Source: Hawksworthiomyces lignivorus (Eukaryota; Ascomycota; Sordariomycetes; Ophiostomatales; Ophiostomataceae). From it: 64,000 nucleotides of DNA. The DNA is taken from positions 1 through 64,000 of the forward strand of contig NTMA01000031.1 in NCBI GenBank assembly GCA_002917075.1. Direction: 5' to 3'. The translations under genes and the position numbers were made by a program. The notes under the pieces were generated by a model that had not been told where the DNA came from, searched no databases, and was given only the letters and a program-made list of their open reading frames with translations. Positions 5,643-30,554 of the stretch are shown in pieces; positions within the stretch are counted from its first letter, which is position 1, and the number at the start of each line of letters is the position of its first letter.

Positions 5643-7402
5643 GTTAGATCGGTTGCGGCACGCAGCTAGAGTATGTAGGATTCAAGGCGCCTCAGATCCG
5701 CGAGGCTCTCAGGATTTGTGCCAGAGATACACAAGGCTAGCAATAAGTTGCTCGGTTTGGCAAGACAAGATGAGGATGCTTCCTCACCAAGAAAGATAGA
5801 AGAGTGCCTGCAGAAGAGCGAGAACAGGGGAATCAAGAAGGATGAGGGTATTGTTGACAGCTGGAAACTGAAAGTAAAGAAGAAGAGAATATCGACAGAA
5901 GAATTTCATGAAATGCTTCTAGCATGAAGGAAGAGCAGGCGCCTCTGGTATTTAACAAGACAGGAAGAGAGGAGCACCAGCCTCTCATCCTGTAATACTG
6001 GGCAGTCCATTCTTTGAAAATTTTCGCGAGAAAAGTGACGTCCTACACCTTCTCGAAACGCTGATGAGGGTGCCCTTTGGCTCATGGATGAAATTATTGA
6101 AGCAAGAAAAGCGATAGAGTTGCCAGAATATGACAGCATACGACAATACTAAGGCTTGCTTTGAATGAGAGAAAATAGAAAAAGCAAGAGACCTCAATGA
6201 TCCTGCAAGGAATAAGACAAGATTGATAGGTAACATGCAAAGGGAGAAGAAAATGACCGGCTGGAGCGAGCCGGCATGTGCGTTGATACTTAGCATTGTT
6301 CTCAGCCTTTAGCCTTAGTATTGTTCTCCGTTGGCACCCACATCCAGAGGGTCACGATGCCTGCTTGGACCTCCCTTCATAATGTCTCGCCACGTCCAAT
6401 ATTGTCAGAAAGAAGATATCATACAGAAGAATCAGAGATAAGTAAATATATTCACCTATGGAACCAATAGAACGCCTGTGATGTCTCACGAAGAAAGTAA
6501 TGGGAAGCAAGGCATTTTGCTGCCTCATGGATTTTGGCTGATTTGGTGATGGCAAGTGCGCGCTCTGCATAATTTGACATGATTTGAACATTTCAAAGTA
6601 ATGTATCATCAATGTAATAAAAAGTCTCGATACATTTCTATACGGCAATGTTTTTAGCTTTTTCGATCGGCTGTGGTTGGAAGCCAACCTATCCTCATTT
6701 GACGTTGAGAGTAGATTGGAGATCTCTTCTCGTACTATGACAACAGTAGCAAAGGATTTAGATTGTGCAGGAGTTGATTATGAGAGAAAAACTCTCGAGA
6801 AAGAATTAACGACGAGGGCTCTACCATTATTTCTGCCGTGCAACGTAGTCGTTTGTGTATTAGGCCAGATCGTGTTGGAAGTTGTGTTAATTGTGGTAAG
6901 GGATTGGTAACGACTATGTAAAACAAAATCTTGATACTATGGATTTGGTAAGATTATCTTGTTGTCTAGAGATGGTCAACACATATCACGCTGCTATGCT
7001 ACCTACATATCCAAAGTTAGGAGCTCTCATCCACGACAAGGTATTCCACAATGCTGAAAATATTTAGAGCTACACTCTACCCAGAAATTATGTTTGTTAT
7101 GGGAATTTCCAAATAGATATGTAGATCTAGTAGAAGAATCATGGAGGCTTCGAAGAAATTATTTCAAGAGGAACTGTACACGTATTTGCAAATGATCCAA
7201 TTAGACACATTGTCAGCCTGAGGCTGACAATGTTAGCAGTCATCCCACCAACATGCCATTGCCCTTTTGCTTCATCTCACCAACAAACATCTGATGAATT
7301 CTCATTGTACCTTCATCTATCTGCATAATTTAGCTTTGTAATGTCCCTCACAGTTTGCTTGGAGAAAAGTTCACGGCAAGCATCCTCCATATTAGCTGCA
7401 TT
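5643..7402. other. A+T-rich intergenic DNA with one hairpin, no gene seen
   Basis: About 1.8 kb between the divergent STE2 and PNP-NACHT-ANK-HET genes. Open frames up to about 110 codons have no motif and no fungal codon bias. The only structure found is the perfect inverted repeat listed separately at 7207-7233. Confidence 0.5.
7207..7233. repeat. Perfect 12-bp inverted repeat with 3-nt loop
   Basis: Left arm acattgtcagcc (7207-7218), loop tga, right arm ggctgacaatgt (7222-7233). The arms are exactly complementary. It lies about 170 bp upstream of the ATG of the PNP-NACHT-ANK-HET gene, so it may be a dimeric transcription-factor site or a hairpin in the 5' leader. Function is inferred from position only. 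Confidence 0.6.
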
Positions 7403-10400
7403 ATGGAGGCCGAAGACACGTCGTCCAGTGAGGAGGAGTACCATGTGCTATGGGTCTGCACGCAGGATGAGGTCTGGGAGAGAGTGCTGAACATGCTCGA
7501 TGACCGCAACCGCCCTCACCATAATGAAATTCCATCTTTAGTTCCAGCTTCGGGCTTGGTCCCTATGGCGACTTTCTTTCTCGGGCCGCGGTTCTCGTAC
7601 CAATACTGTCTGGGAGGGATTCAAGGTCACAATATCATCATTGCCAGGTTTATCCACTACTCTGCAAGCGAGAGTGATATCTCGGACAGTCGTACAGAAG
7701 CTACCATGTTCAGCAAATTGAAAAGCGCATATCCCAAGCTGGAGTTTGCCATGCTCATTTCTATCGGGGCTGGCGTTCCTATCGATGGCAAGAGCCCAGC
7801 TCTCAGTCTCGGCGACGTTGTGATAAGCGAGCCGTCCATTGGACATGACGGCGGTCAGCGCCATTCTGGAATATTGCTTTGTGATGCCGAAAAGGCCCGA
7901 AGCGGCCAGTTTCTGTGCGTCGGCTCTCTTCCAGCTCCGCCGAAGAAAGTCTCCAACGCTGCACACAAACTGGCCGCTTCGTGGCAGACGTGGAGCGCGG
8001 ATATGAGACTATCATCCGTAGCAGAATCAAATTCAGAGAGGAGATCAAAGCCAGGAGCAACAAAACGATCCATCTCTGTCGTCAAGGACGTCCAAGAGAG
8101 TTTAGACACGGAAACCAGCATGGCACATGATCAAGACCAAGCAGACCAGTCTATGGACACATTAGAGCTCCGTACCAATAATGATGTTGATCCGAATATA
8201 GTCTCCCAGAATCGCTCTGTTGCCTTTCATTTTGGCAACATAGCATCTGCTACATTTGGCATCGACCACATAGCGCCTCAGGATCATCTCAGCCGCGGTT
8301 ACAATATCCGCTGCTTCGACGAATCGGGAGCGGCTGCAGCCATGGATAACACGCCTTGTATGTTCATACGGGTCGTCACAAATCTTTGTGACCTAGACAA
8401 TACCGTGACCACGAACGAACAGAGGACAGACGCAGCCACTCTGGCTGCTAACTTTTCCCGTGCGGTTTTGGATATAATGTCCACAAATTGTGACGAGATG
8501 TCAGACGAGTCTGAACCAGATACTGCACCGTCTGATGAGACATTAAGGTGAGTCATGCTTTTTGTGGCTCCTTCTAACCTCCCCTCCTTCATCTATGCAC
8601 ATGCGAAACCAATATAATCCAATTCCTCTAACTAACCTTTCTGTTTAGCCATTCGTTGAGATCGTTGCACGTACCATATAAAGAGGTCGTGGAGTGGTTG
8701 GCTATGGTGGCGCCAATTGATTATGAAGCTCAACAGACAGACTACAGCAGGAGGTTGTATCCGGGGACGTGCCGCTGGCTCCTTGATTCGGGAGCATACA
8801 ACAATTGGGTCAGTGAACCTGGACAGACCATGTCTTGTCAAGGGCCTCCGGGGGTCGGCAAGACGATGTTGGCAGCGTCTGTGGTAGAAAATCTAAATGC
8901 GAGTTTTAGTGCGAACAAGAGCATTGGTGTTGTGTACATCTACTTCGACTCCTTGCGTCTCTCACAGGATATCAACTCGCTTCTGTTGAACATAGTGAAG
9001 CAGCTGGCACGACACAATTCGGATTTTCGGGCAGAGGTGAGGCAGATGCATAAAGATACATCTTTTGGATATGAAAATCCTGATTGGCGGGATATCAGAA
9101 AATGCCTTTATTCAATGGTCGGCAAGATGGCGCGCATATTTTTTATCATCGATGCCGTAGATGAATGTCTTGCAACCTACCGTGGCCAGTTTCTGCGAGA
9201 GATACGTATGCTACAACGAAAATTCCAAGTCAGCATTATGCTCACTTCAAGGCCCGTTGAAGGCTTTAGAGTTTCTGAACAATTCGACAACGCCAAGGAG
9301 ATTGAAGCACGTGCTACTGTGAATGATTTGCGAGCATTCGTTCGGGGAAACGTGAGCGGTTTGCAGCTCTTGCGGCAGGCTGGAGGTGAGCTTCAGAGCA
9401 AGACTATAACAAGCCTTGTGCAATCAGCAGATACGAGGTAAGGGGATCCCGTGGAGGCTAGAGCATTCCAAGCCATAGCTAACTGCGTACTAAGCTTTTT
9501 GTTAGCTGCACTCAACCTATGCTTCCTTGCTCAGGAGACGTACCACGAGTCGACGCAACGCTTTCTGGTGAGGCCTGCTTCTGAATCGGATAGCTACGAC
9601 GCTGCGTACAGTAATATCATGGAGCGAGTTTCTGCCCAAGTCCCTGAGCGCTGGAAGCTTGCAAAGAAAGCCCTCTCGTGGCTGACATTCACCACACGGC
9701 AGCTTTCAATCTTGGAGTTGCAGCATGCGCTAGTGATGCCAGGCATTGGCCCAGCAGTCGAGTCCGTCAGACTACCCTCTATTGCAAGCATAATCTCTGT
9801 TTGCGGAGGATTGGCAATTCTTGATCTTGAGAGTGGTAATATTCGTTTGGTACACAGCACAGCAAGAGATTACCTATATCGGGCTCGAGAACGGTATTTC
9901 CTAGGCGAGGAACAAATCGGGGATGCCTGTGCAGTGTGTCTCTCTTCCTGCCAATTTGAAGAGGAAAGTTTCAAGAGAGACAAGGTTGACGAAATACTAA
10001 AATCAATTCCGCTTTATGCGTACGCGGCTGAGAATTGGGGATTCCATTCTGGTGAGGTTATGCCGCTTCACCAGCGAATCACCGATCTGCTTGCTTCTCC
10101 CCGAAAGATGAAGCTTGCTTGCCAGGTGTCCATGGCAGCAGCGTTGTCAAGACCCAGCCGCTTATTTTTAAACGAGGCTGGAGGGCATATTGGTGTGATG
10201 CACATGGCAGCATATGCTGGAGCCAAAGGCGCCATTCAATCTCTCCTCGCTAGTTCGGCCACGCAGCTCTGTGAACAAGATGAATTTGGTCAAACTCCGC
10301 TTCATTGGTCAGCGCAGGGTGGGCGTGGCCAAATTGTCGACTTGATCTTGGCACAATCGTCAGTCGATGTGGATTTGAGAAACATTTACGGTCAGACGCC

Positions 10401-13400
10401 ACTGGCTATAGCATCAGAAAAGGGCTATTCCTACATTGTTGAGAGGCTACTCGTTCATGGCGCAAATCCAAACCTGCAAGACCTGGCGAAGGTGACGCCG
10501 CTCTGGTATGCCGCGTGGGCCGGACACACGGCTGTTGTCAGCTTGTTGCTAGCTACAAGGAAGCTGGCCGATCTAAACCCACACTTTGAAATGCATGGCT
10601 GGGGCTATGATACAAATATGCTCCAAGGGTTCCGTTATGAAGGTTTGACACCGCTAGCATTAGCCGCAATGTATGGAAACATTGATATTGTGCGGTTGCT
10701 GTTGGGTCAACAAGGCATAATCAGTCGTCCTGAAGATTGGGTCACTAAGAAGGACGTTGCGAAAGCTCTGGAATTGGCTCTAGAGTTTGGAAATGACAAT
10801 GCAACAGAGCTGATTCTTGATAAGGTTGCCGCTTGTCCCGGCTTGGACAATAAGAAGATATCGGGGGATCTTCTTGACGAAGCAGCTAAGAGAGGAGACG
10901 AAAATGCGGTAAAATTGTTGCTTGCCAGACCAGGTGTAGACTCAAACTACCAAGGTGAGAGGTATGGGATGACACCACTCATGACAGCAGCTAGAATGAA
11001 CCGTAGTGCGGTTGTGAAGCTTCTGCTTGCATTAGAAGATGTTGATCCGAACAGGACTGCGTACAAATTTCATACTGTGAATCTAGCTATGTACAGCCAG
11101 ACGAGGTATTTGGCTTCACCTGGTCAGATTATGAGTCTGACTTCTCGCAGAGGCCAGTCCGCGTTATCAATTGCAGCGGAATGGGGTCATGAGGCCATTG
11201 TCAAGCTACTCGTGGCAGACAAGAGGGTTGATCCAGATATACCAGATGTCGAGAACCGAACCCCACTCACCCTTGCAGCAGAAGCTGGAGAAGAAGCAAT
11301 CGTAGAGCACCTTCTCGGGACTGGGCGCGTGGACCCGGATCACAGAGACGAAGATGGCCGTACTCCCCTATCGAGGGCCATGGCTCCGAAGCCAGACTGG
11401 ACCAGGTATGACTGGTCTGACAATGATATGAGCGTACGGATCCTTAACTATGACCACATAGTAACAGAAGAAGACCGCGGTTGGAATAAGGAGCATAGGG
11501 GAGTAATCCAAAGCCTACATGCGACTGGCCAGGTTGACCTGAATGCTCGAGATAGAGACGGCCGAACACCGGCCTCCCACGGAGCCGAGAGAGGCAATGT
11601 CGACTTATTCAAGCTACTTCTTAGCTACCCTGGTACAGATCCAGACGCAAAGGATAATCGTGGATGGTCTCCACTTCTCTGGGCCGCAGCAGGTGGCCGC
11701 CAAGCAGTTGTCGAACTGCTCCTTGATACACAGCGGGTTGACGTGGCCGCGTCGTCGAATTCCTATGAAACGGCTCTGTTCCTCGCGGCTAAGTCTGGAC
11801 ATAAAGGCGTGGTGGATGTTCTGATTGCTAAGAATGGGATTGAATTGGATTCACAAAACAGAGATGGAATAAGCCCTCTTTCTGTTGCGGTTCAAGGTGG
11901 CTACTATGACGTGGTACAGCAGCTCTTGGAGACCCAGCGCGTCGATCTGAACTCTCGTGACAACAAGGGACGTACTCCCTTAGCGGCTGCAGCTCTTGCA
12001 GGCTCAGAGGCGATAGTAAACCTCTTCATAGCCTTGGGGGAAGTGGACCTAGAATCAGAAGATGCTGAGGGACGCACACCACTCTCACTAGCTGCAGAAC
12101 ACGGACACGCCGGAGTCGTTGGGCAATTTCTTGCCAATGATCGAGTTGACCCCGATCGCATAGACCATGCTGGAAGATCGCCACTTTCCTGGGCCGTTGA
12201 TCCAGGTAGTATACCAGAAGAGGCAGCTGGCAGAGAGGACGTAATTCGACGGCTGCTACAGGTTGGCACAGTTGATCCGAATCGTGTTGATTCTTCTGGA
12301 TGTACACCACTTCTTCGAATAGCGGGACAGGACAGCCATAAACGCGATGGAGAAGTAGTAGAACTCCTTCTCTCACGAAAAGACACTGATGTAGAACGGA
12401 AGGATCCTAAAGGACGTACTGCGCTTTCAATTGCCAGAGACACGGGTGCAACTGTCATGGTTGACCAACTGCTAGCGATGCGTAATATCAACTCCAATTT
12501 GCCAGACGGGGAAGATGAGGTTGTTTTTACCGACACAGAGATGACCAAAAAGGACAGCAGCGAATTGCAGCTGTGTACCAAATGTGGAGCTTTGGATGTG
12601 AACAAAATCTTCTCTTCGGAGTCACCCGCAGTTGCAGACACAAGCAGAGTTAACAGAATCGCACACCTGGGACTGGTAAGCGATGCGTGGAAAAGTAGGC
12701 CCTGCCCATTTTGTCGACTTATAGCAGCCATCTGTCCCGACTCCGGAGATACAGGCGCTGGCAGGCCAGAGCTGTACGGTCACAGTCTCTTTGCGGTTTC
12801 AAGCAATGTGGTGTGGCTCTGGCAACGTAGAGACAACGACCACCGTCACAATGTGATACCGGATTGGATCGATACGGTTTTCCTTAGTCTGAGCTTCTCT
12901 AGATCAGCCTCAGGTTATATAAGTCGTGTCGGATCAAATAGCAACCACGGACTACGTGCTCTTACAATACCAAGGCTGCTCCCTGGCCGAATCGATCTGA
13001 GCAAAGCAAGGGGCTGGATTGACTGCTGCAAGACAAGTCACGGCAAGCAGTGTAACCCCGATGGGAGCCGAATAGCACCGTATCTCCGTCTCATTGAGTG
13101 CGCTTCCCGCAAGATAATCACCCCAGCAGCCTCTGTGCCGTTTGTTGCACTGAGCTACGTGTGGGGGCCTCCACCAGATGTTCCAGAAGTCGTAGATCGC
13201 ACTCATCTTGACCCGAAGATTGAGCAGGTCGTTGAAGATGCGATCCGCGTGACGCTCGCTCTCGGAATTTCACACTTGTGGGTTGACCGCTACTGCATCA
13301 CCAAGGAAGATGATGCAATCAGACAGGAGCAGCTGCGAAACATGAATGTTGTGTACGAAAGCGCTGAAGTGACACTAGTTGCTGCTGCTGGTACAGATTC

Positions 13401-14670
13401 TTCCTTCGGCCTTCCTGGAATCGGCCCGCGACCAAGGAAATCTGCGCCTTGTGTTAGAATAAAAGACAATCTCCTTGTTGTGATCCCCCCAGACCCAGTT
13501 CGGAATATTCTAACATCTGCGTGGTCGTCTCGAGGGTGGACATTCCAGGAAGGCTACTTGGCGCGGCGCCGTCTATTCTTCACGGAGTATGAAATGTCAT
13601 ACGAATGCACACAGCTCATAGGGAGAGAGGCCATTGAAATTCCACAACATATACAAAGGAGCTCGTCCATGTTGTCGAGAGAGATGATGCCAAATTCGTG
13701 GTGTTACGGACATGAGGGCATCAGGAATGGATATCCAAGACCCGACAAGGCGCCATCGAGTGACATGCCAAAGATAATGAACTACTCCAGTGCGACGCAG
13801 TTGTATGGTCTGCTCGAAGCATACACGAAAACCAAATTGACACACGAGGACGACATTTTGAATGCAATGCTCGGTATTTTTCAAACCTTTTCTGATCTCG
13901 AGACACCATTATACCACTTATGCGGTGTTCCAATCTTGCATTCTGTGCCAGATTGGGTTTCTCCATATGAAGCCCGCAACTATAAAGACACTGTAGAGGG
14001 ATTCATGGCTGGCCTGTGCTGGATCCTCAAATCGCCGGGAAGCAGACGCCGGTTAGCCAGAGGCCAGAAGTTTCCCAGCTGGTCGTGGATTGGCTGGAAA
14101 GGCTGCATGAGTTACGGGGGTATCAACCCGGACAGCTTTCGCTTTCAGAAACAATTTCCTACAGGAGTCACTATCATCTTCGAAAGAGATGCTGCAGATA
14201 GCAAGTCATCAATCTCGCCCAGCCAGCACGACGTTTCGTGGAGTGAGTATGCAACGCTGGACAAAACCGCTAGGAGGGCCGACTTTCACCAGTATCATCT
14301 TTTGCAAGTCACGGCACTTGTGCTGATGATCACTCTCCGGAATACTGGCTTTGTGGACGGAATGACAGAGTGGATGGCCACCACGTGCATAGAGGATGAG
14401 GTCTTGCAAGGGCCTTTCCACCTCACCAAGGATGACAGCGCCGATGCTGATTTTAGCCATCGGCTCCGGAAAGATGCGTGGCTTGGAATCATCCTTGTGT
14501 CATCAGAGGATATTTTATATGTGCTGGTCTTGGAGAAAAGAGAAGACCTGCCAACATCTCAACAGCAAATGCAGAAAGTGTACTGGGAGAGGATAGGGCT
14601 GGCCAAGATTCGCTGGAAATCAGATCTGCAGAAAGACGTGACAGAGCAACGGACTCTCATTCTCGGATAA
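7403..14670 (+). CDS. Giant NLR-like protein: PNP-like, NACHT, ankyrin array, C-terminal HET domain
   Basis: Exons 7403-8547, 8649-9437 and 9495-14670, 2369 aa. Intron 1 (GTGAGT...TTTAG) carries CTAAC. Intron 2 (57 nt, GTAAGG...CTAAG) was placed by frame and restores the FLLAALNLCFLAQ block seen at this point of fungal NACHT proteins. Domains: PNP/UDP-phosphorylase-like, about 12-375 (FAMLISIGAGVP, LSLGDVVISEPS); NACHT with Walker A GPPGVGKT at 447-454 and Walker B FFIIDAVDEC near 546-556; winged-helix part (ALSWLTFTTRQLSILELQHAL); about 20 ankyrin units, about 878-1650; then a full HET protein: Cys pairs CTKCGALD and CPFCRLI, ALSYVWG near 1863, LWVDRYCITKED and SRGWTFQEGYLARRRLFF. Exon 3 alone holds winged helix, ankyrins and HET without a stop, so this is not two adjacent genes merged by error. 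Fungal NLRs sense non-self and HET domains trigger cell death; the specific role here is inferred. The first ATG in frame is 7403. Confidence 0.88.
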
Positions 14671-22309: not shown

Positions 22310-24544
22310 CTATTCCAGAAACTCCATCAGCGCCGTCAGCATCTCGTGCATGTCCTTGCCGTCGGCGATGGTCAGGTCGAGCTCGTCGCGGCGCTCCTGC
22401 AGGGACTGGCGCAGCACGGCGAGCGAGTCGCCGCGTTCGGCCAGCACGGCGCGGATCTTGGCGCGGGCGCCGTCGTCCTCGGCGGCGAGCCAGGCCAGGA
22501 TGGTGTCGAGGGTCTGCAGGGCGAGCAGGCCGGCGTCCATCTGGCGGCCGAGGCGCTCGGCGGCCCAGGCCTCTTTTTCCTCGGCACCGTCGTCGTCGTC
22601 GGGCAGCGCGGCGGCGTAGCGCGGGCCGCGGCCCTCGGCGTCCATGTGGCGGTCGACGAGGGCGACGCGGGCGGCGTACTGGGGCCGCAGGGCCATGAGC
22701 TGGTCGACCTTTTGGTAGTCCTTCTCGACGAACTTGGCGAGCAGGCGGACGCGCTCGGGGGCGTCGGCGGGCAGCAGGCGCAGCATGGAGGCGAAGAGGG
22801 CGAGCAGGCGCTCGGCGGTGGGGCCGGCGCGCAGGCCCGCGTCGGCATCTTCCTTGGATTTCTTGTGCTTCTTGCCGTGCTTCTTGCCGCCGCCGGCCTC
22901 GTCGTCGTCGCCCCGCATAAACAGCGTGAAGAGCGTCTTGAGCCCGCCGGCGTCGACAACGCGGCGGCAGACGGGACCGGCGCGGCTGCCGGCGGCGGCG
23001 TGGTCCAGAAGGCGCAGGGCGGGGCCGCGGGCGCGGCGGGCGTCCTTGAGCAGTAGCAGGCACAGCTCGACGCCCTCGGCGTCGAGGAACTTTGCCTTGC
23101 CGAGGGGGAGGGCGTCGTCTGCGTCAGCGTCGGCGCCGTCCGCGCTCTCGGACGAGTCCTCGTCCTCGTCCACCAGGTACGTCAGCGCCTCAAACAGATT
23201 CTCCATGTACTCCTCCTCGTCGCTGCCGCGCGGCGGGTCGCGGCGGCGGTAGGCGGCGACCAGCTGCAGCAGCACGTCGACGGCGTCGCGCTCGGCCAGG
23301 CGGCGCGCGTTGCGCGGCGACGCCTGCGCCAGCACGGCCAGGATCTCGGCGGCGTACTGGCGGTTCTGCGAGACGGCGGCGGACCCCTCCTCGCTCCCGC
23401 CGTCGACGCGCCGCACGCGCCCCAGCAGCCAGTCCACCAGGCCGTCGTGGCCGCCCAGGGCCTCGGCGGCGGCGCGGCTGGCGCGGCTGCCCGCCGAGTC
23501 CGCCGAGTCCGCCGCACCCCCTGCGCCCGAGCACAGGTTCTCCACGATGCCCAGCGCGTGGTACACGCCCGTGCGGTCGGCCTCGTCGGCCGACCCGTCC
23601 AGCCGCGCCAGGTTCGCGACCAGCAGCCCCACCAGGTCGGCCGCCAGCAGCGCGTCCACCAGCGCGGCCCAGTCGCCGTCGGCCGCGTCCACGTCCTCGT
23701 CCGTCAGCTCGCCCACGATCTCGATCGCCGCCAGCGCAATATCCGTGTTGTCGTGCGCCAGCAGCCCCACCAGGCTCGCCGCCGTCCCCAGCCGCGCCAG
23801 CTCCGGGTACAGCGCCGGGTGCTCGCCCACAATCGACAGCGCCCGCACCGCCGCGTCCAGGTCCGCCTCGCTGCCGATGAACCGCGTCGGCTCGCTCTCG
23901 TACCGCGCCCGCAGCTCCGCGTTGCGGCTGATCCGCTTCTCCAGCGCCAGCGCCGTCCGCCGCAGCCACGCCGCGTCGTACGTCGCCTCCTCCTCTGCCA
24001 CCACCGCCTCCGCAGGCTCCCGCGCTCCGCCGCCCCGCTTGCCGCCGCCGCCGCCGTCGCCTTCGTCGTCCTGCCCTTCGACGTAGTCTAGGATGCTCGC
24101 CTCGGTCCGCGTGATGCCGCCGCCAAAGAACCGCCCCTCCTCGTCGTCGCCTTCCTCCTCATCGCCCGGCGGTGGTGCTGGGCCATAGTCGCCATCGTCC
24201 TCATCTTCTGGTGGTGGCCGTGATGGGCCCGCCTCGACATCGTCTTCGTCCTCCACGCGCGCGTGGCGCGAGCTGCTGCCGTTGGTCGAATATTTCGCCG
24301 ACTTGTAGATTTCGTCTGCAAAGGGGGAGAAGCGACAGTTAGTCTCGTGCAGGCGCACAGCAAACAATGAAACTAGGGCGAAGGGAGACGCAAGGAAACC
24401 TTACTGGGGTCGCTAATTGGCTCGAACTTGCGTTTGCTTGGAACGCCCGATTTCTGGTGTTGTCAGCGATGCGTTACGTGGACGAATAGATTGACTTGGC
24501 GAGAACTTTCTGCTCACCTTGAAGAGCTCGTCGATGCTCGTCAT
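22310..24544 (-). CDS. CTNNBL1: Beta-catenin-like protein 1 homologue (CTNNBL1), spliceosome-associated armadillo protein
   Basis: Exons (minus) 24544-24518, 24453-24405 and 24315-22310, 693 aa. Exon 1 encodes MTSIDELFK, exon 2 KSGVPSKRKFEPISDP with a basic KRK patch that may act as a nuclear signal, and exon 3 continues NEIYKSAKYS. CTNNBL1 is an armadillo-like protein of the Prp19/CDC5L-associated spliceosome complex. Seen: an acidic and Pro/Asp-rich region (residues about 40-110), FFGGGITRTEASILDYVEG, and helical repeats including LARLGTAASLVGLLAHDNTDI and AAIEIVGELTDEDV. The C-terminus retains the RVRLLAKFVEKDYQKVDQLMALR block. Third positions are extremely GC-rich, so many overlapping open frames on the opposite strand are shadows. 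It is convergent with VMA10. Confidence 0.93.
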
Positions 24545-25479
24545 TTTGGTCAGGCAAGCGAGAAATCAAAAGGGGGGATATGCAGTCTAGAGAGAGCTGT
24601 CTATTGAGTTCTCTGCAACGCGAGGAGGAGAGGTGAATGCGCCAAGAAGCAAGAAAAGGATGAAGTTGCAGAAACATGTGAGGCTGCGAAATGCAACAAA
24701 GCAAGCACAGAGTCGGATTTCTCGCCGTAGTGCATAATTTGCCTTAGTGCGCTCATAGCGTTTTCCATTGCATTGGGGGAAGGCTACAGGCCTTGGGTCC
24801 AGTAAAATTCAGTTGCTTCTTAGCTCAGGGCTCCACTGCAGCAGCTAAAGTGACAGGCAGAATTTGCCCATGCATACGGATTAATATGTAAGGCTTCAGT
24901 CTGGACAATGAAGACAGAAATTCGAAGAGCATGCCAACATGCATTCCTTTTGGACGAAATCAAGGCAAGCATCGTGCAAGAGTACATCGAACAAGACTCC
25001 ATATGCAAGATATAGGTAGATGCAGTCATGGTCACAGAAAATCAGGCACATAGAACACGAAGCTGTGGAATTCAATAAATGGCATCACATAACAAAACCA
25101 GGTATTACAAGCGTACGCCTATACATAGCTGACATCATATACACGTAGGACGTGTTGTTTCTAAGCTTGAAAAGTCCAAGTGCTTATCCAGCATTATAGT
25201 TTGTCCCACCCCAGCAGGACTTGCAAGTATCTCCCTTGCAGACATTGTCCCTCTGATCTAATAGACGACCGCTCAAGAATCAAATCTTCTGAAATTTCCC
25301 GTACGTGGGCGCTGCAGGTCATGTATCCGTGGCCTGTACAGGTCTTACAGCCGGCACACGTCTGTGTGTGAGGCTCGCATGGTGAATGAAATCGTTGGAA
25401 TAGCGGAGTGGCATCGCGGCAACCCTTCCTCCTAGCTCTGCTTCAGTCTCTGCGCCGCGTTGGCAATCGGCAGCAGCGG
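24545..25479. other. Intergenic DNA, no gene seen
   Basis: A+T-rich after the CTNNBL1 promoter; open frames under 80 codons without motifs. Ends at the 3' end of the HET-S homologue. Confidence 0.5.
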
Positions 25480-26313
25480 TCAGTCGTCCCAGATCCCCTT
25501 GCCTCCATACGTGTTTCCAATCTGGACGCGAGCTTCGCCGCTCGCCTCCACGATTCCCACCACGTTTGTCGCTTGGTCTCGGACGCAGATCTCGTCAGCA
25601 AATGTCGCATCCGTGAAAACGTCGCCGAGCTGGAATCTTGCGCGGTCTGTCGTCAACATCTTGCCGACTGAGTTGCGCGCTGCGACGGTGCCGGTCTGGT
25701 GCACTTCTGCGATTATGCGGGCTGCCATGCGCGGCCCGTCCTCGACTTCTTCGATTTCTATGTCTGCCAGCTGGCGGGGCGCTTCGGCAGGGCACACCTT
25801 GTCCAGGTCGTCGACCAGGGCGGTGACCTGGTCGACCAGTGTCTCGAATTGCTTGCCGTCGTACAGCGCCCACGCCGTCTTCTTTGCTAGCCCGGTCTCT
25901 GCCTGCCTGCGGCGCACCACGTCCCGCAGCCGATGGTGCAGCGCACGGCCGGTCCGATCTGTGCCGCTTTGTTGGAGCAGCGCGTGATCCTGCGGGCCCG
26001 GCGCGCGCTCGTACCGCTTCGACTTCTCTTGGGCGCGCTCAAACAGGAGCGCCAGCTGCGCCAGGATCGCCTGCGCCAGCTGCACCCGCCGGTCGGCCGG
26101 CGCGCGGGCGCGGAAGCGCGGGTCATCGCGGACCCCCACCGCCTCGCCCCACTGCGCCAGCCGCGCCCGCGCGACTTCTAGCCGCAGCTGGCACCGTTCG
26201 TAGTCGGCCCCATAGTGGCGGCCCTGCTGAACGTACTCAAAGCACTCGACGCAGTTGTTGAAGAGCGCCGCTACGCTCAGCGCGCTGGCTATGGTGCCAA
26301 AGAGCTCGGCCAT
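25480..26313 (-). CDS. het-S: HET-S homologue: HeLo domain plus two HET-s amyloid motifs
   Basis: Single exon, 277 aa (Podospora HET-s/HET-S is 289 aa). The known HET-S protein is a dormant pore-former: its C-terminal domain folds as a beta-solenoid amyloid when seeded, which unmasks the HeLo domain for membrane insertion and kills the cell. Seen: HeLo domain at about 1-220 with family N-terminus FGTIASALSVAALFNNCVEC and later KKTAWALYDGKQFETLVDQV and IEIEEVEDGP. The C-terminal motif R1 starts near residue 224 (RARFQLGD) and R2 near 260 (EARVQIGNTYGGKGIWDD). They are about 36 residues apart, as in HET-s. Residue 33 is His, the HET-S (killer) state rather than the Pro of the HET-s prion allele. 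ATG at 26313 is inside a longer open frame and is chosen by homology. The gene is divergent from an amyloid-tagged NLR. Confidence 0.94.
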   Translation of the reverse strand: MAELFGTIASALSVAALFNNCVECFEYVQQGRHYGADYERCQLRLEVARARLAQWGEAVGVRDDPRFRARAPADRRVQLAQAILAQLALLFERAQEKSKRYERAPGPQDHALLQQSGTDRTGRALHHRLRDVVRRRQAETGLAKKTAWALYDGKQFETLVDQVTALVDDLDKVCPAEAPRQLADIEIEEVEDGPRMAARIIAEVHQTGTVAARNSVGKMLTTDRARFQLGDVFTDATFADEICVRDQATNVVGIVEASGEARVQIGNTYGGKGIWDD

Positions 26314-26859
26314 CGATGATAAAGGAGATTCCCTTGCGAGGTCGACCTTTTCAAAGTCTAACACACACACCCCTGATTCAATAAGGAGCAAAAAGCGCCT
26401 AGGACCCTGTAACAGGAAGTCTATCAATAAGCGCTAGGTGTGTCGAAAAAGGTGTATTCACAGCATGATCAAATTTGTGCCTAGTCTGTTGGCGAGCCAT
26501 TGCCTTAGAATCACAAGGCTTGGGCAATCCGCAGGCTGCTGGTTTAACCCTTTTCAGACCGAAAGAGAGGGCGCCTAATTGCAACCCTCCCTTCCAAAAA
26601 CAGAGACTGAGCTGACGCTGCGAGGTTGATGTCAGCCAATCAGGACTCTATGCCTCCTCGTGAGGCTGACAGACCACAGAAAATGAGCTCCTTGAGACGA
26701 GTGTCGGGCGTCAGTGCTGCTCCGTTTCTCTGAGAACAGGTCAACACTTCTAGACACTTCTTTGTGGGACGAACCTCTCTCTATTCGTCTGCGCTGTCGC
26801 ACAGCAGCGTTACTCAATCTCGGCCAGCTGTTTGTGAAATTTTGCAGTCTAAACAAAAC
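26314..26859. promoter_or_regulatory. Divergent promoter between HET-S homologue and its NLR
   Basis: 546 bp between the two divergent start codons, suggesting shared control of effector and receptor. No specific binding site can be defended by eye. Confidence 0.55.
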
Positions 26860-29481
26860 ATGCCTCGAGAGACAGAGCCTCCGGGGCGGAAAGACCAGCT
26901 CGGTCAAAAGCGGCATTCTCGGCGACGCTCTGCCATCCTGCGCTGGTTTCGCGGCAACACGCATACGCCGGCAGCGGGCAACACGTACACTCCCAAGCAT
27001 TCTCCACCCTCTTTTGAAATAGATGGCCTTCCTACTGCTCGCCCTGGTGCGTCTAATGTTGTCGAAGCACTAAGGGCCGACGGCCAGGCGCACGTACAGA
27101 TTGGAAACAGCACTACCTATAACGTTCACTATGGGAACCAAGAACCGTCTCACTTGGCTCATGTGGAAGCTCGCCATTCTACAAACGACGAGGCACCCCT
27201 CTGCATCATCCCGTTTGGCCGCAATAGAGACTTTGTTGGCCGCCAGACGATCCTGGATCAGCTTCTTAAAACCGTCCCGCCAAGGGCAGACCCTCACGAC
27301 TGTCAGCGGATAATTATCGAAGGTCTAGGCGGAGTCGGAAAGACGCACATTGCGCTGGAGACGGTCTACCTGCTGCGCGACAAGCATCCCGACTGTGCCG
27401 TCTTCTGGGTTCCCGCTGTAGACATAGCTACTTTTGAGAACGCCTACCGCGACATCGGCCGCCAACTGAACATTCCAGGAATCGACGACGACAAAGCGGA
27501 CATCAAGCTGCTTGTCAAGAGAGCGCTCAGCCAAAGCTCCGACTACTGGCTAATGGTGATTGACAATACCGACGATTTGGGTCTGCTGGCTAGAGGAAGG
27601 GCACCACTACGCGACTATCTTCCTTTTAGCTATAAAGGCTCTCTTCTCTTCACAACACGGAACCATGCTGCTGCCCAAAAGCTTGGCATTCGGTCAGCAA
27701 ATGTCGTCCGCGTGACAGAGATGAGCAGATCAGAAGCCGCTGAAATGCTGCAAAAAACCCGAAACATAGCTCAGAAGCACGACACGGAGAGTATACCAAG
27801 GTTGGCTGACTACCTGTCCAATCTACCGCTTGCTATCAAACAGGCGTCTGCCTATATGGACAGAGCAGGAATAACTGCGGCGAAGTATCTAGAATATTGC
27901 CAGTCGAGCGACACGCAAATGATCGAACTCCTCAGCAAAGACTTCGATGACCTTGGCCGCTACAAAGGCACCCAAAATCCAGTCGCTACCACTTGGCTGA
28001 TCTCTTTCCAGCACATCTTCCAGGAGAATCGAGCTGCGGCGCAATGCCTCCAGTTCATGTCGTTGCTCGCTGAGAAGGGTATTCCAAAGAGTCTCCTACC
28101 GCTAAGTGAAGATCCGTTAGAGTCTGAGGAGGTTATCGCAACTCTGAAAGCATATGGATTTATTACCGAGAATGCGGACGAGAAATCTTTTCAGATGCAT
28201 AGACTTGTGCGACTGGCGATGCAGAACTGGCTAATGGTGACAGGAAAGATGACTGCATGTGTCACAAGTGTGATCCAACGGCTGCATGAGATGTTCCCTT
28301 GGCCAGAACATGACAACAAAGATATCTGGATAACGTATCTTCCGCATGCTATAGCAGCGTTAGAATTCCGAGGTAGTTCATTAGATAAGAGAATTGTGGG
28401 AGGATTTCTGTTCGTGATAGGGTGCTGCTACATTTATCAAGGCAAGTACGGGAAGGCCGAAACGACTTATCGACAAACAATTAAGCTCCACACAGAAGTA
28501 CTAGGAATCAAGCATCCTGATACACTCCACAATCAAAATATCCTTGCCATCGTTCTTAGGAACCAAGGAAAACTCGAAGAGGCCGAAGCGATACATCGAC
28601 AAACGTTAAAGCTTCACATGAAAGTACTAGGAGTCGAGCATCCTGATACACTTATAAATCAAAATAACCTTGCCAGGGTTCTCAGGGACCAAGGAAAATT
28701 CGAAGAGGCCGAAGCGATACATCGACAAACGTTAAAGCTTCAAATGAAAGTACTAGGAGTCGAGCATCCTAGTACACTTAACAGTCAAAATAACCTTGCC
28801 ATCGTTCTCAGGAATCAAGGAAAACTCGAAGAGGCAGAAGCGATACATCGACAGACGTTAGAGCTTCAAATGAAAGTACTAGGAGTCGAGCATCCTGATA
28901 CACTTAACAGTCAAGATAGCCTTGCCGTCGCTCTCAGAGACCAAGGAAAATTCGAAGAGGCCGAAACGATACATCGACAGACGTTAAAGCTTCAAATGAA
29001 AGTACTAGGAGTCGAGCATCCTGACACACTTTACAGTCAAAGTAACCTTGCCATCGCTCTCAGAGACCAAGGAAAATTCGAAGAAGCCGAAGCGATACAT
29101 CGACAGACGTTAAAGCTTCGAACGAAAGTACTAGGAGTCGAGCATCCTGACACACTTTACAGTCAAAGTAGCCTTGCCATCGCTCTCAGTAACCAAGGAA
29201 AATTCGAAGAAGCCGAAGCGATACATCGACAGACGTTAAAGCTTCGAACGAAAGTACTAGGAGTCGAGCATCCTGACACACTTTACAGTCAAAGTAGCCT
29301 TGCCATCGCTCTCAGTAACCAAGGAAAATTCGAAGAAGCCGAAGCGATACATCGACAGACGTTAAAGCTTCGAACGAAAGTACTAGGAGTCGAGCATCCT
29401 TATACACTCAACAGTCAAAATAACCTTGCCAAGGTATTGCGAGCTCAGGGCAAACCTGAGGAGTCTAAGACACTTTATTGA
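26860..29481 (+). CDS. NLR-like receptor: N-terminal HET-s amyloid motif, NB-ARC ATPase, TPR array
   Basis: Single exon, 873 aa from the first in-frame ATG (context aaacATGcc). The open frame extends further upstream without an ATG. Residues about 64-90 carry an amyloid motif: ASNVV...GQAHVQIGN, closely matching the R2 region of the neighbouring HET-S homologue (ATNVV...GEARVQIGN; 12 of 20 aligned positions identical). Then come FVGRQTILDQLL, NB-ARC P-loop GLGGVGKT at about 145-152, Walker B-like YWLMVIDNTDD, sensor-like GSLLFTTRN, a NLPLAIKQASAYM GxP-type motif and MHRLVRLAMQNWL. The C-terminus is eight 42-residue TPR units plus a partial ninth. In known amyloid-signalling pairs, ligand binding oligomerises the NLR, stacks the N-terminal motifs into an amyloid seed and converts the effector. 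That role here is inferred from motif match and gene adjacency. Confidence 0.92.
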   Translation: MPRETEPPGRKDQLGQKRHSRRRSAILRWFRGNTHTPAAGNTYTPKHSPPSFEIDGLPTARPGASNVVEALRADGQAHVQIGNSTTYNVHYGNQEPSHLAHVEARHSTNDEAPLCIIPFGRNRDFVGRQTILDQLLKTVPPRADPHDCQRIIIEGLGGVGKTHIALETVYLLRDKHPDCAVFWVPAVDIATFENAYRDIGRQLNIPGIDDDKADIKLLVKRALSQSSDYWLMVIDNTDDLGLLARGRAPLRDYLPFSYKGSLLFTTRNHAAAQKLGIRSANVVRVTEMSRSEAAEMLQKTRNIAQKHDTESIPRLADYLSNLPLAIKQASAYMDRAGITAAKYLEYCQSSDTQMIELLSKDFDDLGRYKGTQNPVATTWLISFQHIFQENRAAAQCLQFMSLLAEKGIPKSLLPLSEDPLESEEVIATLKAYGFITENADEKSFQMHRLVRLAMQNWLMVTGKMTACVTSVIQRLHEMFPWPEHDNKDIWITYLPHAIAALEFRGSSLDKRIVGGFLFVIGCCYIYQGKYGKAETTYRQTIKLHTEVLGIKHPDTLHNQNILAIVLRNQGKLEEAEAIHRQTLKLHMKVLGVEHPDTLINQNNLARVLRDQGKFEEAEAIHRQTLKLQMKVLGVEHPSTLNSQNNLAIVLRNQGKLEEAEAIHRQTLELQMKVLGVEHPDTLNSQDSLAVALRDQGKFEEAETIHRQTLKLQMKVLGVEHPDTLYSQSNLAIALRDQGKFEEAEAIHRQTLKLRTKVLGVEHPDTLYSQSSLAIALSNQGKFEEAEAIHRQTLKLRTKVLGVEHPDTLYSQSSLAIALSNQGKFEEAEAIHRQTLKLRTKVLGVEHPYTLNSQNNLAKVLRAQGKPEESKTLY
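28411..29478 (+). repeat. 126-bp tandem repeats encoding 42-aa TPR units
   Basis: Units start at 28411, 28537, 28663, 28789, 28915, 29041, 29167, 29293 and 29419 (last partial), all in frame. Units 29041 and 29167 differ at three of 126 bases. Units 29167 and 29293 differ only near their 3' ends. The outer units are more diverged, which indicates recent duplication or gene conversion in the middle of the array. Each codes LAxxLxxQGKxEEAExIHRQ-type TPR sequence. Confidence 0.95.
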
Positions 29482-30554
29482 GTAATTCAATGTGTTAGAA
29501 ATTATATAGTGAAGTTTACATGTGTGCATGATGACACTACAAGCGTTAAGAGTGAGCATCTCAACGTGTGAAAATAGACTTTAAGAATTGATCTATTCTC
29601 AACATAAGGGGTTACATTGACACGGGTTTGAATTACGGTACTAGATTTTTTGATATTACAAAAATGTAAATAAGTAATTGCTTCCCCTTTATATATTTTC
29701 ACTCTCTAGGCACTCGAAAGCGAGTAGTCTTCTTGCAAGTCTACAGATAACTTTGGCAAATGATCCGCGCCAGATGAGCTTTTTTTTAACTAGCTATGCA
29801 GGTTTTATTACATCCAACCTATGTAGCAACCTCTTGGTGTCACCACTGGGTTTATGCTTAAGGTGAAGGAAGAACAGCGCAAATAAGTTGTGCACCAGCG
29901 TAGGTGCTGTTTCTAGCCTTCCTGGGCGACTACTGAAGGTGTAATCTAAGCCTCGCTAGTGGACGGACTTGGAGCACAGGGAAGGGGGCACTAAGCTAAT
30001 CAAGCTGCCCAGCTCAATTTTTACTTTGGCTGCGGTGGATGAGATACCAGATGGAAAATTGAAATAGGTATGTGGGTAATTCACTGGTAAAGACTAAGCC
30101 AGAGGTGGCAGTAAGCTAGCAGACCCGACGGTTGATGAGAAGTCTTTGAACCATATCATTCAACAGAGTGCCGCAGCTACTTGGGCCTCTTACTATCCGT
30201 GTGAAAGAATTCTTTAACAGATTCTTTAATAGATTGATGAGGGCGTAAGCCGACGTTGCTCTGTGGAATCTGCTGCGGTTGCGATGAATGGAGAGGAAAG
30301 CTATTTAGGGTGCTGACACACCGCCCTTGCTGGGCTTCTGTGAAGAAGCAGGCCGCTACAAGAGTCACAACCCACTCTGCCAGATCGTTTCCACTATGGA
30401 ATCTTAGTCGCACTGCATGCGACTCTCTCTATATTCGAGGCTCTAACAAGACAGAGCATCGCGGACTTATAAATCTCTACACTTCAGCAAAAAGGCATTA
30501 AAGAGACAGAAGCAGTCACAAAAGTTTCCTAATCTCGTTACGCGGCGCAGTACA
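29482..30554. other. Intergenic DNA, no gene seen
   Basis: About 1.1 kb, A+T-rich, without a supported frame. The last 100 bases are the probable promoter of the histidine-phosphatase gene. Confidence 0.5.

What the first reader, a model, noticed from the sequence alone, without database searches (positions are those of the whole stretch)
25480..29481. Divergent HET-S-like executor and amyloid-tagged NB-ARC/TPR receptor form a two-gene death module
The minus-strand gene encodes a HeLo domain with R1 and R2 HET-s motifs. The plus-strand neighbour encodes NB-ARC and TPRs with a third copy of the motif near its N-terminus. Aligned over 20 residues, receptor and R2 share 12 identities, including A-N-VV upstream and VQIGN in the core. 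In Podospora the partner of HET-S is NWD2, a NACHT-WD40 protein; here the ATPase and sensor are NB-ARC and TPR. The adjacency, divergent promoter and motif match together suggest an amyloid-signalling pair with an exchanged receptor.
Basis: partly seen in the sequence, partly recalled or inferred. Interest (0 to 1): 0.9.

Follow-up and report, generated by a model that had tools for sequence, protein, structure and literature searches.

The report
Amyloid-linked fungal death gene pair
A fungus carries a likely cell-killing protein beside an immune-type receptor that shares its amyloid trigger motif, a known kind of pairing with an unusual receptor type, and two more receptors elsewhere in the genome carry the same motif while only one intact copy of the killer was found.

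Summary
Window 25480-26313 (-) encodes a HET-S homologue: a HeLo domain plus R1 and R2 of canonical HET-s (HRAM1) type. Divergent from it, 26860-29481 (+) encodes an NB-ARC/TPR receptor with a third motif copy (r0) at residues 64-85. Pfam scores r0 below its cut-offs, but profiles from about 110 other HET-S proteins single out R1, R2 and r0 in the whole window. Best reading: the HET-S/NWD2 mechanism, an oligomerised receptor templating the executor's beta-solenoid and freeing a pore-forming HeLo domain. NB-ARC/TPR amyloid receptors are already known (FNT1, PNT1); new, in the passages I read, is this class with a canonical HET-S. The same genome adds two paralogous receptors with r0: C107, divergent from a broken HET-S relic, and C137, with no executor in the stretch fetched. 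The three form one clade; summed over them, their r0s fit the R2 of the one intact executor best of 114 R2s compared. This suggests three receptors feeding one executor in trans. Nothing was tested at the bench, and synteny in other fungi could not be checked.

The parts
25480..26313 (-). HET-S-like executor, 277 aa in one open frame; HeLo domain (residues 6-192) plus two amyloid repeats
25738..26298 (-). HeLo domain (PF14479); residue 33 His as in toxic HET-S, residue 23 Glu (acidic, as the Asp of HET-s)
25615..25680 (-). R1 amyloid repeat, residues 212-233
   Evidence: R1 model 37.1 bits; AF2 strands 213-221 and 226-229
25507..25572 (-). R2 amyloid repeat, residues 248-269
   Evidence: R2 model 42.0 bits; AF2 strands 249-257 and 262-265
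26314..26859 (.). 546-bp divergent intergenic region
26563..26706 (.). upstream block, 81.5% identical to the region upstream of the C137 receptor; found at these two places only in the genome search; probably non-coding by its indels
26860..29481 (+). NB-ARC/TPR receptor, 873 aa
26860..26955 (+). basic N-terminal extension, shared with C137; in C107 an in-frame TAG lies in this part
27049..27114 (+). r0 amyloid motif, residues 64-85
27295..27885 (+). NB-ARC ATPase domain with P-loop
28454..29431 (+). TPR array, 126-bp period, 7.8 copies, 91% matches

Best explanation
This is an amyloid-signalling cell-death pair of the HET-S/NWD2 type. The TPR array senses a ligand; the NB-ARC domain oligomerises; clustered r0 motifs fold into a HET-s-type beta-solenoid; this templates R2/R1 of the HET-S-like protein; its HeLo domain then attacks the plasma membrane and kills the cell. 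Shown here: the genes, the domains, the motif match, constraint on r0, and the paralogous arrangement. Inferred from published work on HET-S/NWD2: ligand sensing, oligomerisation, amyloid templating, membrane attack. Likely extension, given separately as the novel case: two further NB-ARC/TPR receptors signal in trans to the same executor.
For: HeLo and HET-s profiles far over cut-off and matches to the solved HET-S structures. R1, R2 and r0 are the three best positions in the window for both motif models. Genome scan with PF17108: 4 of 5 matches are the C137 receptor, the C107 HET-S relic, this executor and this receptor. r0 pN/pS is 0.20, 0.37 and 0.39 over three receptor pairs, against 0.78, 0.95 and 0.87 in the following linker and 0.26-0.29 in NB-ARC; one-sided Fisher for fewer nonsynonymous differences in r0 than in flanks p 0.0007, 0.047, 0.18, and for nonsynonymous against synonymous counts p 0.008, 0.020, 0.068. 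Same divergent arrangement at C107. The executor's C-terminus is modelled as two strand-arch-strand units and matched to the HET-s amyloid (2lbu, E 1.1e-4, target TM 0.73, 65 columns). His at position 33, where proline makes HET-S non-toxic (PMC3531502 passages). P-loop present; receptor residues 1-110 modelled without order, NB-ARC and TPR mostly confident; structural matches include KLC TPRs, Apaf-1 and a plant NLR resistosome.
Against: Pfam scores of r0 are below curated cut-offs. PF17108 matches in the genome scan are also all below cut-off (E 0.0065 to 1.4), and at the same lax threshold the family rang in 4 of 14 control genomes. r0 carries His at the conserved R15 position, while C107 and C137 carry Arg; proline there abolished templating by NWD2 (PMC4344463 passages). 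r0 starts at residue 64, against 3-23 in NWD2. Executor residue 23 is Glu; HET-s has Asp there and needs both D23A and P33H to become HET-S, though 76 of 120 homologues have Asp and 19 Glu. Residue 86 is Gln (18 of 120 homologues; 73 have Glu) and E86K disables HET-S. r0 resembles R1 poorly (6 of 22). The C137-C107 comparison alone does not show significant constraint. The executor model is weak overall (mean pLDDT 57.8, HeLo part misarranged, rmsd 17.9), the HELLF match has E 2.0, and AF2 may have memorised HET-s. No expression or functional data. The E23 caution was added on re-checking and lowers the confidence from 0.82 to 0.80.
Confidence: 0.8

Rival explanations
1. The executor's real partner is a NACHT/WD40 receptor of NWD2 type elsewhere in the genome, and the r0 of the NB-ARC/TPR gene is vestigial.
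For: NWD2 is the characterised HET-S partner (PMC4344463 abstract and passages), and the genome has at least 89 NACHT matches at E <= 0.01, a lower bound.
Against: Scans of the genome with PF11558 (3 matches) and PF17108 (5 matches) showed no NACHT receptor with an N-terminal HET-s motif; the one C46 match (15.5 bits) lies at the far end of a NACHT match. These scans do not read across introns and can miss a diverged motif, as they did the C107 receptor's. r0 shows constraint.
Confidence: 0.08
2. The executor acts mainly in allelic HET-S/HET-s-type incompatibility and not downstream of the receptor.
For: It keeps the full HET-S layout, including H33.
Against: That use is described as exclusive to Podospora anserina (PMC10197012 passage). 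The conserved r0 beside it would be unexplained.
Confidence: 0.05
3. The shared motif is a general interaction tag used by the receptor for inhibition or assembly, not for amyloid templating.
For: No amyloid assay exists for these proteins; r0 has H15 and an unusual position.
Against: The core pattern (N3, hydrophobic residues at 5, 8, 16 and 18, G19, with minor departures) fits the HET-s-related consensus quoted in PMC4518210 (passages), and R1/R2 are modelled as the solenoid.
Confidence: 0.07

Closest known systems
HET-S / NWD2 of Podospora anserina
   Same: HeLo executor with HRAM1 R1 and R2, divergent neighbour NLR with a single r0, ORFs 0.6 kb apart there and 546 bp here
   Different: Receptor is NB-ARC/TPR instead of NACHT/WD40; r0 at residue 64 behind a basic extension instead of at residues 3-23; two further paralogous receptors in the genome
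HELLF / FNT1 of Podospora anserina (HRAM5)
   Same: NB-ARC/TPR receptor with r0 next to an executor with R1 and R2 of HET-s-related type (PMC7885112 and PMC7889193 passages)
   Different: There the executor has a HeLo-like domain and the most diverged motif class (HRAM5); here a HeLo domain and HRAM1
HELLP / PNT1 of Podospora anserina (PP motif)
   Same: NB-ARC/TPR receptor beside an amyloid-gated executor
   Different: Motif is the PP/RHIM type, single copy in the executor
HeLo / NB-ARC-TPR pairs of Arthroderma (Daskalov 2012)
   Same: HeLo domain beside an NB-ARC/TPR STAND protein sharing a terminal motif (PMC3321046 passage)
   Different: The shared extension there is stated to be distinct from the HET-s motif

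Membership tests
HET-S executor (HeLo + HRAM1) | HeLo domain | tested here: met
   PF14479 171.6 bits, cut-off 23.2; 2wvn E 2.6e-72
HET-S executor (HeLo + HRAM1) | C-terminal R1 and R2 of HET-s type | tested here: met
   PF11558 62.6 bits, cut-off 32.2; motif profiles 37.1 and 42.0
HET-S executor (HeLo + HRAM1) | HRAM1 class: N at position 3, no Q at 16 or 18 | tested here: met
   N3 in R1, R2 and all three r0; positions 16/18 read by eye as F/L, V/I, V/I, L/V, V/I (class rule from PMC4518210 passages)
HET-S executor (HeLo + HRAM1) | membrane toxicity on amyloid conversion | not testable with these tools
   H33 as in toxic HET-S, but E23 and Q86 (meaning of these positions from PMC3531502 passages); no assay
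NWD2-type receptor | single r0 in the N-terminal region | tested here: met
   motif profile 22.6 bits, residues 64-85; Pfam below cut-off
NWD2-type receptor | r0 at the extreme N-terminus | tested here: not met
   r0 starts at residue 64; NWD2 residues 3-23
NWD2-type receptor | NACHT ATPase | tested here: not met
   NB-ARC 34.1 bits over cut-off 23.5; NACHT 22.6 below 26.7
NWD2-type receptor | WD40 repeats | tested here: not met
   TPR families and no WD40 family among the 25 of 32 matches shown; TPR superhelix in the model
FNT1/PNT1-like NB-ARC/TPR amyloid receptor | NB-ARC + TPR with N-terminal amyloid motif beside an executor | tested here: met
FNT1/PNT1-like NB-ARC/TPR amyloid receptor | common descent with FNT1 | not tested
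   FNT1 sequence was not compared
Amyloid signalling pair | r0 seeds R1/R2 | not testable with these tools
   needs a seeding assay
Many-receptors-one-executor network | several receptors with r0, fewer intact executors | tested here: met
   3 receptors and 1 intact HeLo + HRAM1 executor found; searches do not read across introns
Many-receptors-one-executor network | activation of the executor in trans by the other receptors | not testable with these tools
   motif similarity only

The most novel reading that the evidence does not exclude
A fungal NLR network: three dispersed NB-ARC/TPR sensors descended from one pair converge by amyloid templating on a single surviving HET-S executor in trans, after local executors decayed (C107) or are absent (C137). 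This would be a prion-based counterpart to sensor/helper NLR networks of plants (the plant comparison is recalled).
Probability: 0.42. Interest if true: 0.72.

Novelty: new variant of a known kind. Interest (0 to 1): 0.52.

Why it matters
It would show that the canonical HET-s amyloid can be driven by a different ATPase and sensor class. More usefully, it offers a natural test of a possibility that a review states without showing it: that one amyloid-gated executor may be activated by different receptors (PMC5485727 section 8; PMC7889193 passages predict branched pathways). The three r0 variants are a natural series for asking how far an r0 may drift and still template one R2.

Tried and rejected
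The region search of receptor residues 1-150 against the protein collection gave 401 candidates and none at E <= 0.001, so it says nothing about r0 elsewhere; a wider region (55-480) was used. A viral-contig search with the executor found no relative. No Rfam family at gathering threshold in 24500-30500. I considered whether Trichoderma receptors aligned over 94-99% of residues 55-480 share this r0: by the HRAM1 profiles they do not; the best score anywhere in the 120 listed relatives (of 1062 matches) is 11.6, against 22.6-40.0 for the three receptors here. Other, non-HRAM1 motifs in those relatives were not excluded. I considered that C107 keeps a working short executor: rejected, because the HeLo N-terminus changes reading frame near codon 16-17 and R1 with most of the HeLo domain is missing. 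A conserved intergenic coding exon was considered and judged unlikely from the indel pattern. Segmental duplication was considered: the nucleotide comparison of the window with the fetched C107, C137 and C110 stretches showed, in the part of the output that I printed (first 3,000 characters), only the two genes and, for C137, the upstream block.

Dropped rows: for the motif profiles, 8 of 120 (R2) and 9 of 120 (R1) homologues whose aligned motif was not 22 residues were left out; identical motifs were counted once (105 and 104 distinct). The 120 homologues are those listed of 154 found. For the tree, 1 of 28 other own-genome NB-ARC loci lacked a recognisable P-loop and was left out, only 30 of 57 NB-ARC matches had been cut out as loci (two of them C117 and C107 themselves), and 42 of the 120 listed relatives were used.
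Full report
What is there. The window is fungal: it lies in an assembly of 43.7 Mb in 191 contigs (contig C117). The closest HET-S homologue is an unnamed protein at 56% identity; the closest named ones include Rhypophila (52%), Staphylotrichum (50%), Podospora (52%) and Madurella (53%). The closest receptor relatives with names include Parachaetomium, Corynascus and Achaetomium. The species itself was not identified.

The executor. The minus-strand ORF 25480-26313 encodes 277 residues with HeLo PF14479 (171.6 bits, cut-off 23.2) and HET-s_218-289 PF11558 (62.6 bits, cut-off 32.2). It matches the solved HeLo of HET-s/HET-S (2wvn, 2wvo) and the HET-s amyloid (2kj3). Against the 120 listed homologues it has H33 (75 of 120), E23 (19 of 120; 76 have D, 8 A) and Q86 (18 of 120; 73 have E). 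Of 60 positions conserved in at least 90% of them it departs at 8. PMC3531502 (passages) reports that H33P alone makes HET-S non-toxic, that HET-s needs both D23A and P33H to become toxic, and that E86K removes toxicity. So H33 speaks for a toxic form, while the acidic residue 23 and Q86 are cautions; most homologues share the acidic 23. AlphaFold2 (36-row alignment, mean pLDDT 57.8) is poor over HeLo but gives R1 strands at 213-221 and 226-229 and R2 strands at 249-257 and 262-265. Foldseek ranks four HET-s/HET-S HeLo chains first (E 1.6e-9 to 2.7e-8, but rmsd near 18) and then three HET-s amyloid models (E 1.1e-4 to 2.3e-4, target TM 0.68-0.73); the HELLF amyloid is at rank 27 (E 2.0, target TM 0.65). 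Memorisation of HET-s by the predictor cannot be excluded.

The receptor. ORF 26860-29481 (873 aa) has NB-ARC over its cut-off, NACHT below it, and TPR_10/TPR_12. The TPR array has a 126-bp period, 7.8 copies and 91% matches. Predicted structure: residues 1-110 at pLDDT under 50; 687 of 873 residues at 70 or more. The best structural matches are APPBP2 and kinesin light chain TPR chains; a Podospora near-identical TPR array, full-length Apaf-1 (rank 46) and a plant NLR resistosome (rank 50) are also among the 50 listed. By sequence the only PDB hit below 0.01 is 6j5t (E 7.1e-4), the same resistosome entry.

The motif. I built position profiles from R1 and R2 of other HET-S proteins (111 and 112 of the 120 listed homologues, 104 and 105 distinct), leaving out the window's own. 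r0 of the receptor scores 22.6 (R2 model). In 68,881 six-frame positions of the window, the three best for each model are R1, R2 and r0. None of 20,000 shuffles of the first 122 residues reached the score (best 15.2). Identity with the neighbour's R2 is 12 of 22; shuffles reached at most 9. Over 230,777 positions of the loci fetched by then, many of them overlapping, nothing outside these three loci scored above 13.2. Pfam alone is weak: PF11558 15.2 bits and PF17108 13.7 bits, below cut-off. In a scan of the whole genome with PF17108, all matches are below the cut-off, but 4 of 5 were the C137 receptor (22.9 bits, E 0.0065), the C107 relic (22.6, 0.0085), this executor (19.8, 0.061) and this receptor (16.6, 0.65); the fifth (C46, 15.5, 1.4) lies at the far end of a NACHT match. 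In that call's control, 4 of 14 genomes rang at the same lax threshold, none over the cut-off, so the weaker of these scores are not significant alone. The PF11558 control rang in 0 of 14. By the class rules quoted from PMC4518210 (passages), with N at position 3, hydrophobic core positions and G19, the copies read as HRAM1.

Paralogues in the same genome. C107 holds a divergent pair: a receptor ORF of 930 codons with r0 at residues 30-51 of the ORF and, on the other strand, a HET-S relic. In the relic, HeLo residues 1-16 and 17-63 are in different frames, and the sequence then passes directly into R2; R1 and most of HeLo are missing. The junction falls where both flanks encode Val-Arg-Asp (read by eye). 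In C107 the match to the receptor's N-terminal extension contains an in-frame TAG, so its protein would start nearer to r0. C137 holds a third receptor (1152 codons from its Met) with r0 scoring 40.0 and no executor in the 9.9 kb fetched. A protein search of the genome with the executor gave 7 matches and the HeLo family 9, 8 over cut-off. PF11558 found 3 places, 2 over cut-off: this executor, the relic and the C137 receptor. Only the C117 copy was found with both an intact HeLo and an HRAM1 pair; these searches do not read across introns.

Descent and selection. In a 72-row NB-ARC tree the three receptors form one clade (SH-aLRT 100), with C117 and C137 sisters (99); quick method, no bootstrap. 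They are 68-71% identical to each other over NB-ARC and 54-64% to the four nearest of the 27 other own-genome loci compared, though C107 is about as close to some foreign receptors (67-68%). Several foreign relatives carry PNP_UDP, patatin or HET domains by their precomputed Pfam lists. r0 is conserved against variable flanks: pN/pS 0.20 (C117-C137), 0.37 (C117-C107) and 0.39 (C137-C107), against 0.78, 0.95 and 0.87 in the following linker, 0.56, 1.08 and 0.66 in the part before it, and 0.26-0.29 in NB-ARC. One-sided Fisher tests of nonsynonymous differences gave p 0.0007, 0.047 and 0.18; of nonsynonymous against synonymous counts 0.008, 0.020 and 0.068. The last pair, in which neither member has an intact local executor, is the weakest.

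Which executor do the other receptors fit? Against 114 R2 motifs (112 homologues, this executor, the relic), this executor's R2 is the best match by BLOSUM62 for the r0 of C117 and C107, and tied second for C137. The relic's R2 ranks 12 (C117), 37 (C107) and 16 (C137). Summed over the three r0s it is first (199; others mean 123, s.d. 25.5; relic 149). By bare identity it is first for C117, tied first with one other for C107, and tied first with at least eight others for C137. Its R1 ranks only 98 of 112. So the match is to R2, in keeping with the r0/r2 interface suggested in PMC4344463 (passage). This is correlative, and shared ancestry within one genome could contribute.

Promoter. 146 bp upstream of the receptor are 81.5% identical to the region upstream of C137, higher than the stretch holding the coding DNA (71%), and the genome search found only these two places. 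The alignment has single-base indels, so the block is probably regulatory or 5' UTR. C107 shows only a weak 35-bp match in the opposite orientation (E 0.04).

Comparison with the known. HET-S/NWD2 is the model: NWD2 r0 is necessary and sufficient for templating, and ATP-site mutations abolish it (PMC4344463 abstract and passages). That paper counts 55 genomes with HET-S homologues, 46 with an adjacent STAND gene sharing the motif; the passages I saw mention WD, ankyrin or no typical repeats for the receptors. NB-ARC/TPR amyloid receptors are published with other motifs: FNT1 (HRAM5) and PNT1 (PP) (PMC7885112, PMC7889193 passages), and Arthroderma HeLo pairs whose motif is distinct from HET-s (PMC3321046 passage). 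PMC4986451 (passage) names NB-ARC-TPR among the architectures carrying HET-s, sigma or PP motifs taken together. In Sordariales, amyloid N-termini of all types pooled occur on NB-ARC (87, 56%) and T-NACHT (68, 44%) (PMC12258605 passage). I found no text describing a canonical HeLo + HRAM1 executor with an NB-ARC/TPR receptor in the 13 papers I read in passages, which came mainly from searches; not every paper listed there was opened, and supplementary tables, where such a case could be listed, were not readable. Hence 'new variant of a known kind'.

Verdict. Very likely a working amyloid death pair. The part that raises it above routine is the three-receptor, one-executor arrangement, which is directly testable.

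Noticed in passing
window 7334-14670 (+): A second NLR-like gene about 12 kb upstream of the receptor: a weak PNP_UDP match (below cut-off), NACHT over cut-off, ankyrin repeats and a HET domain near the C-terminus, spread over three open frames with stops near 8551 and 9441 (introns or decay not decided).
   Followed up: partly
window 26563-26706: The conserved upstream block holds a CCAAT sequence and an inverted repeat GTCAGCC...GGCTGAC shared with C137 (read by eye).
   Followed up: partly
L016:4646-5209 (C110): Another HeLo protein (156.7 bits) ending in a different single motif-like stretch (YSNVTINGKAHTGDTF); a pattern search found it in no other fetched locus.
   Followed up: partly
L060:1195-1698 (C145): HeLo-related gene in broken frames with a two-fold repeated C-terminal element (KY..P........QIN..V); no ORF over 300 aa resembling a receptor was seen in the two flanks fetched.
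   Followed up: partly
C106:12330-17740: A HeLo ORF lies between a NACHT match (minus strand) and an NB-ARC match (plus strand) within about 5.4 kb; by eye no HRAM1 motif at its C-terminus.
   Followed up: no
P0134, P0219 (Trichoderma virens) residues 34-57: Receptor relatives carry HQGDQ in the N-terminal region, reminiscent of the GDQN motif pair described in PMC12261475 (passages).
   Followed up: no
L014:5434-5745: The HET-S relic's deletion joins two places that both encode Val-Arg-Asp, as would be expected of a deletion between short direct repeats (read by eye).
   Followed up: no
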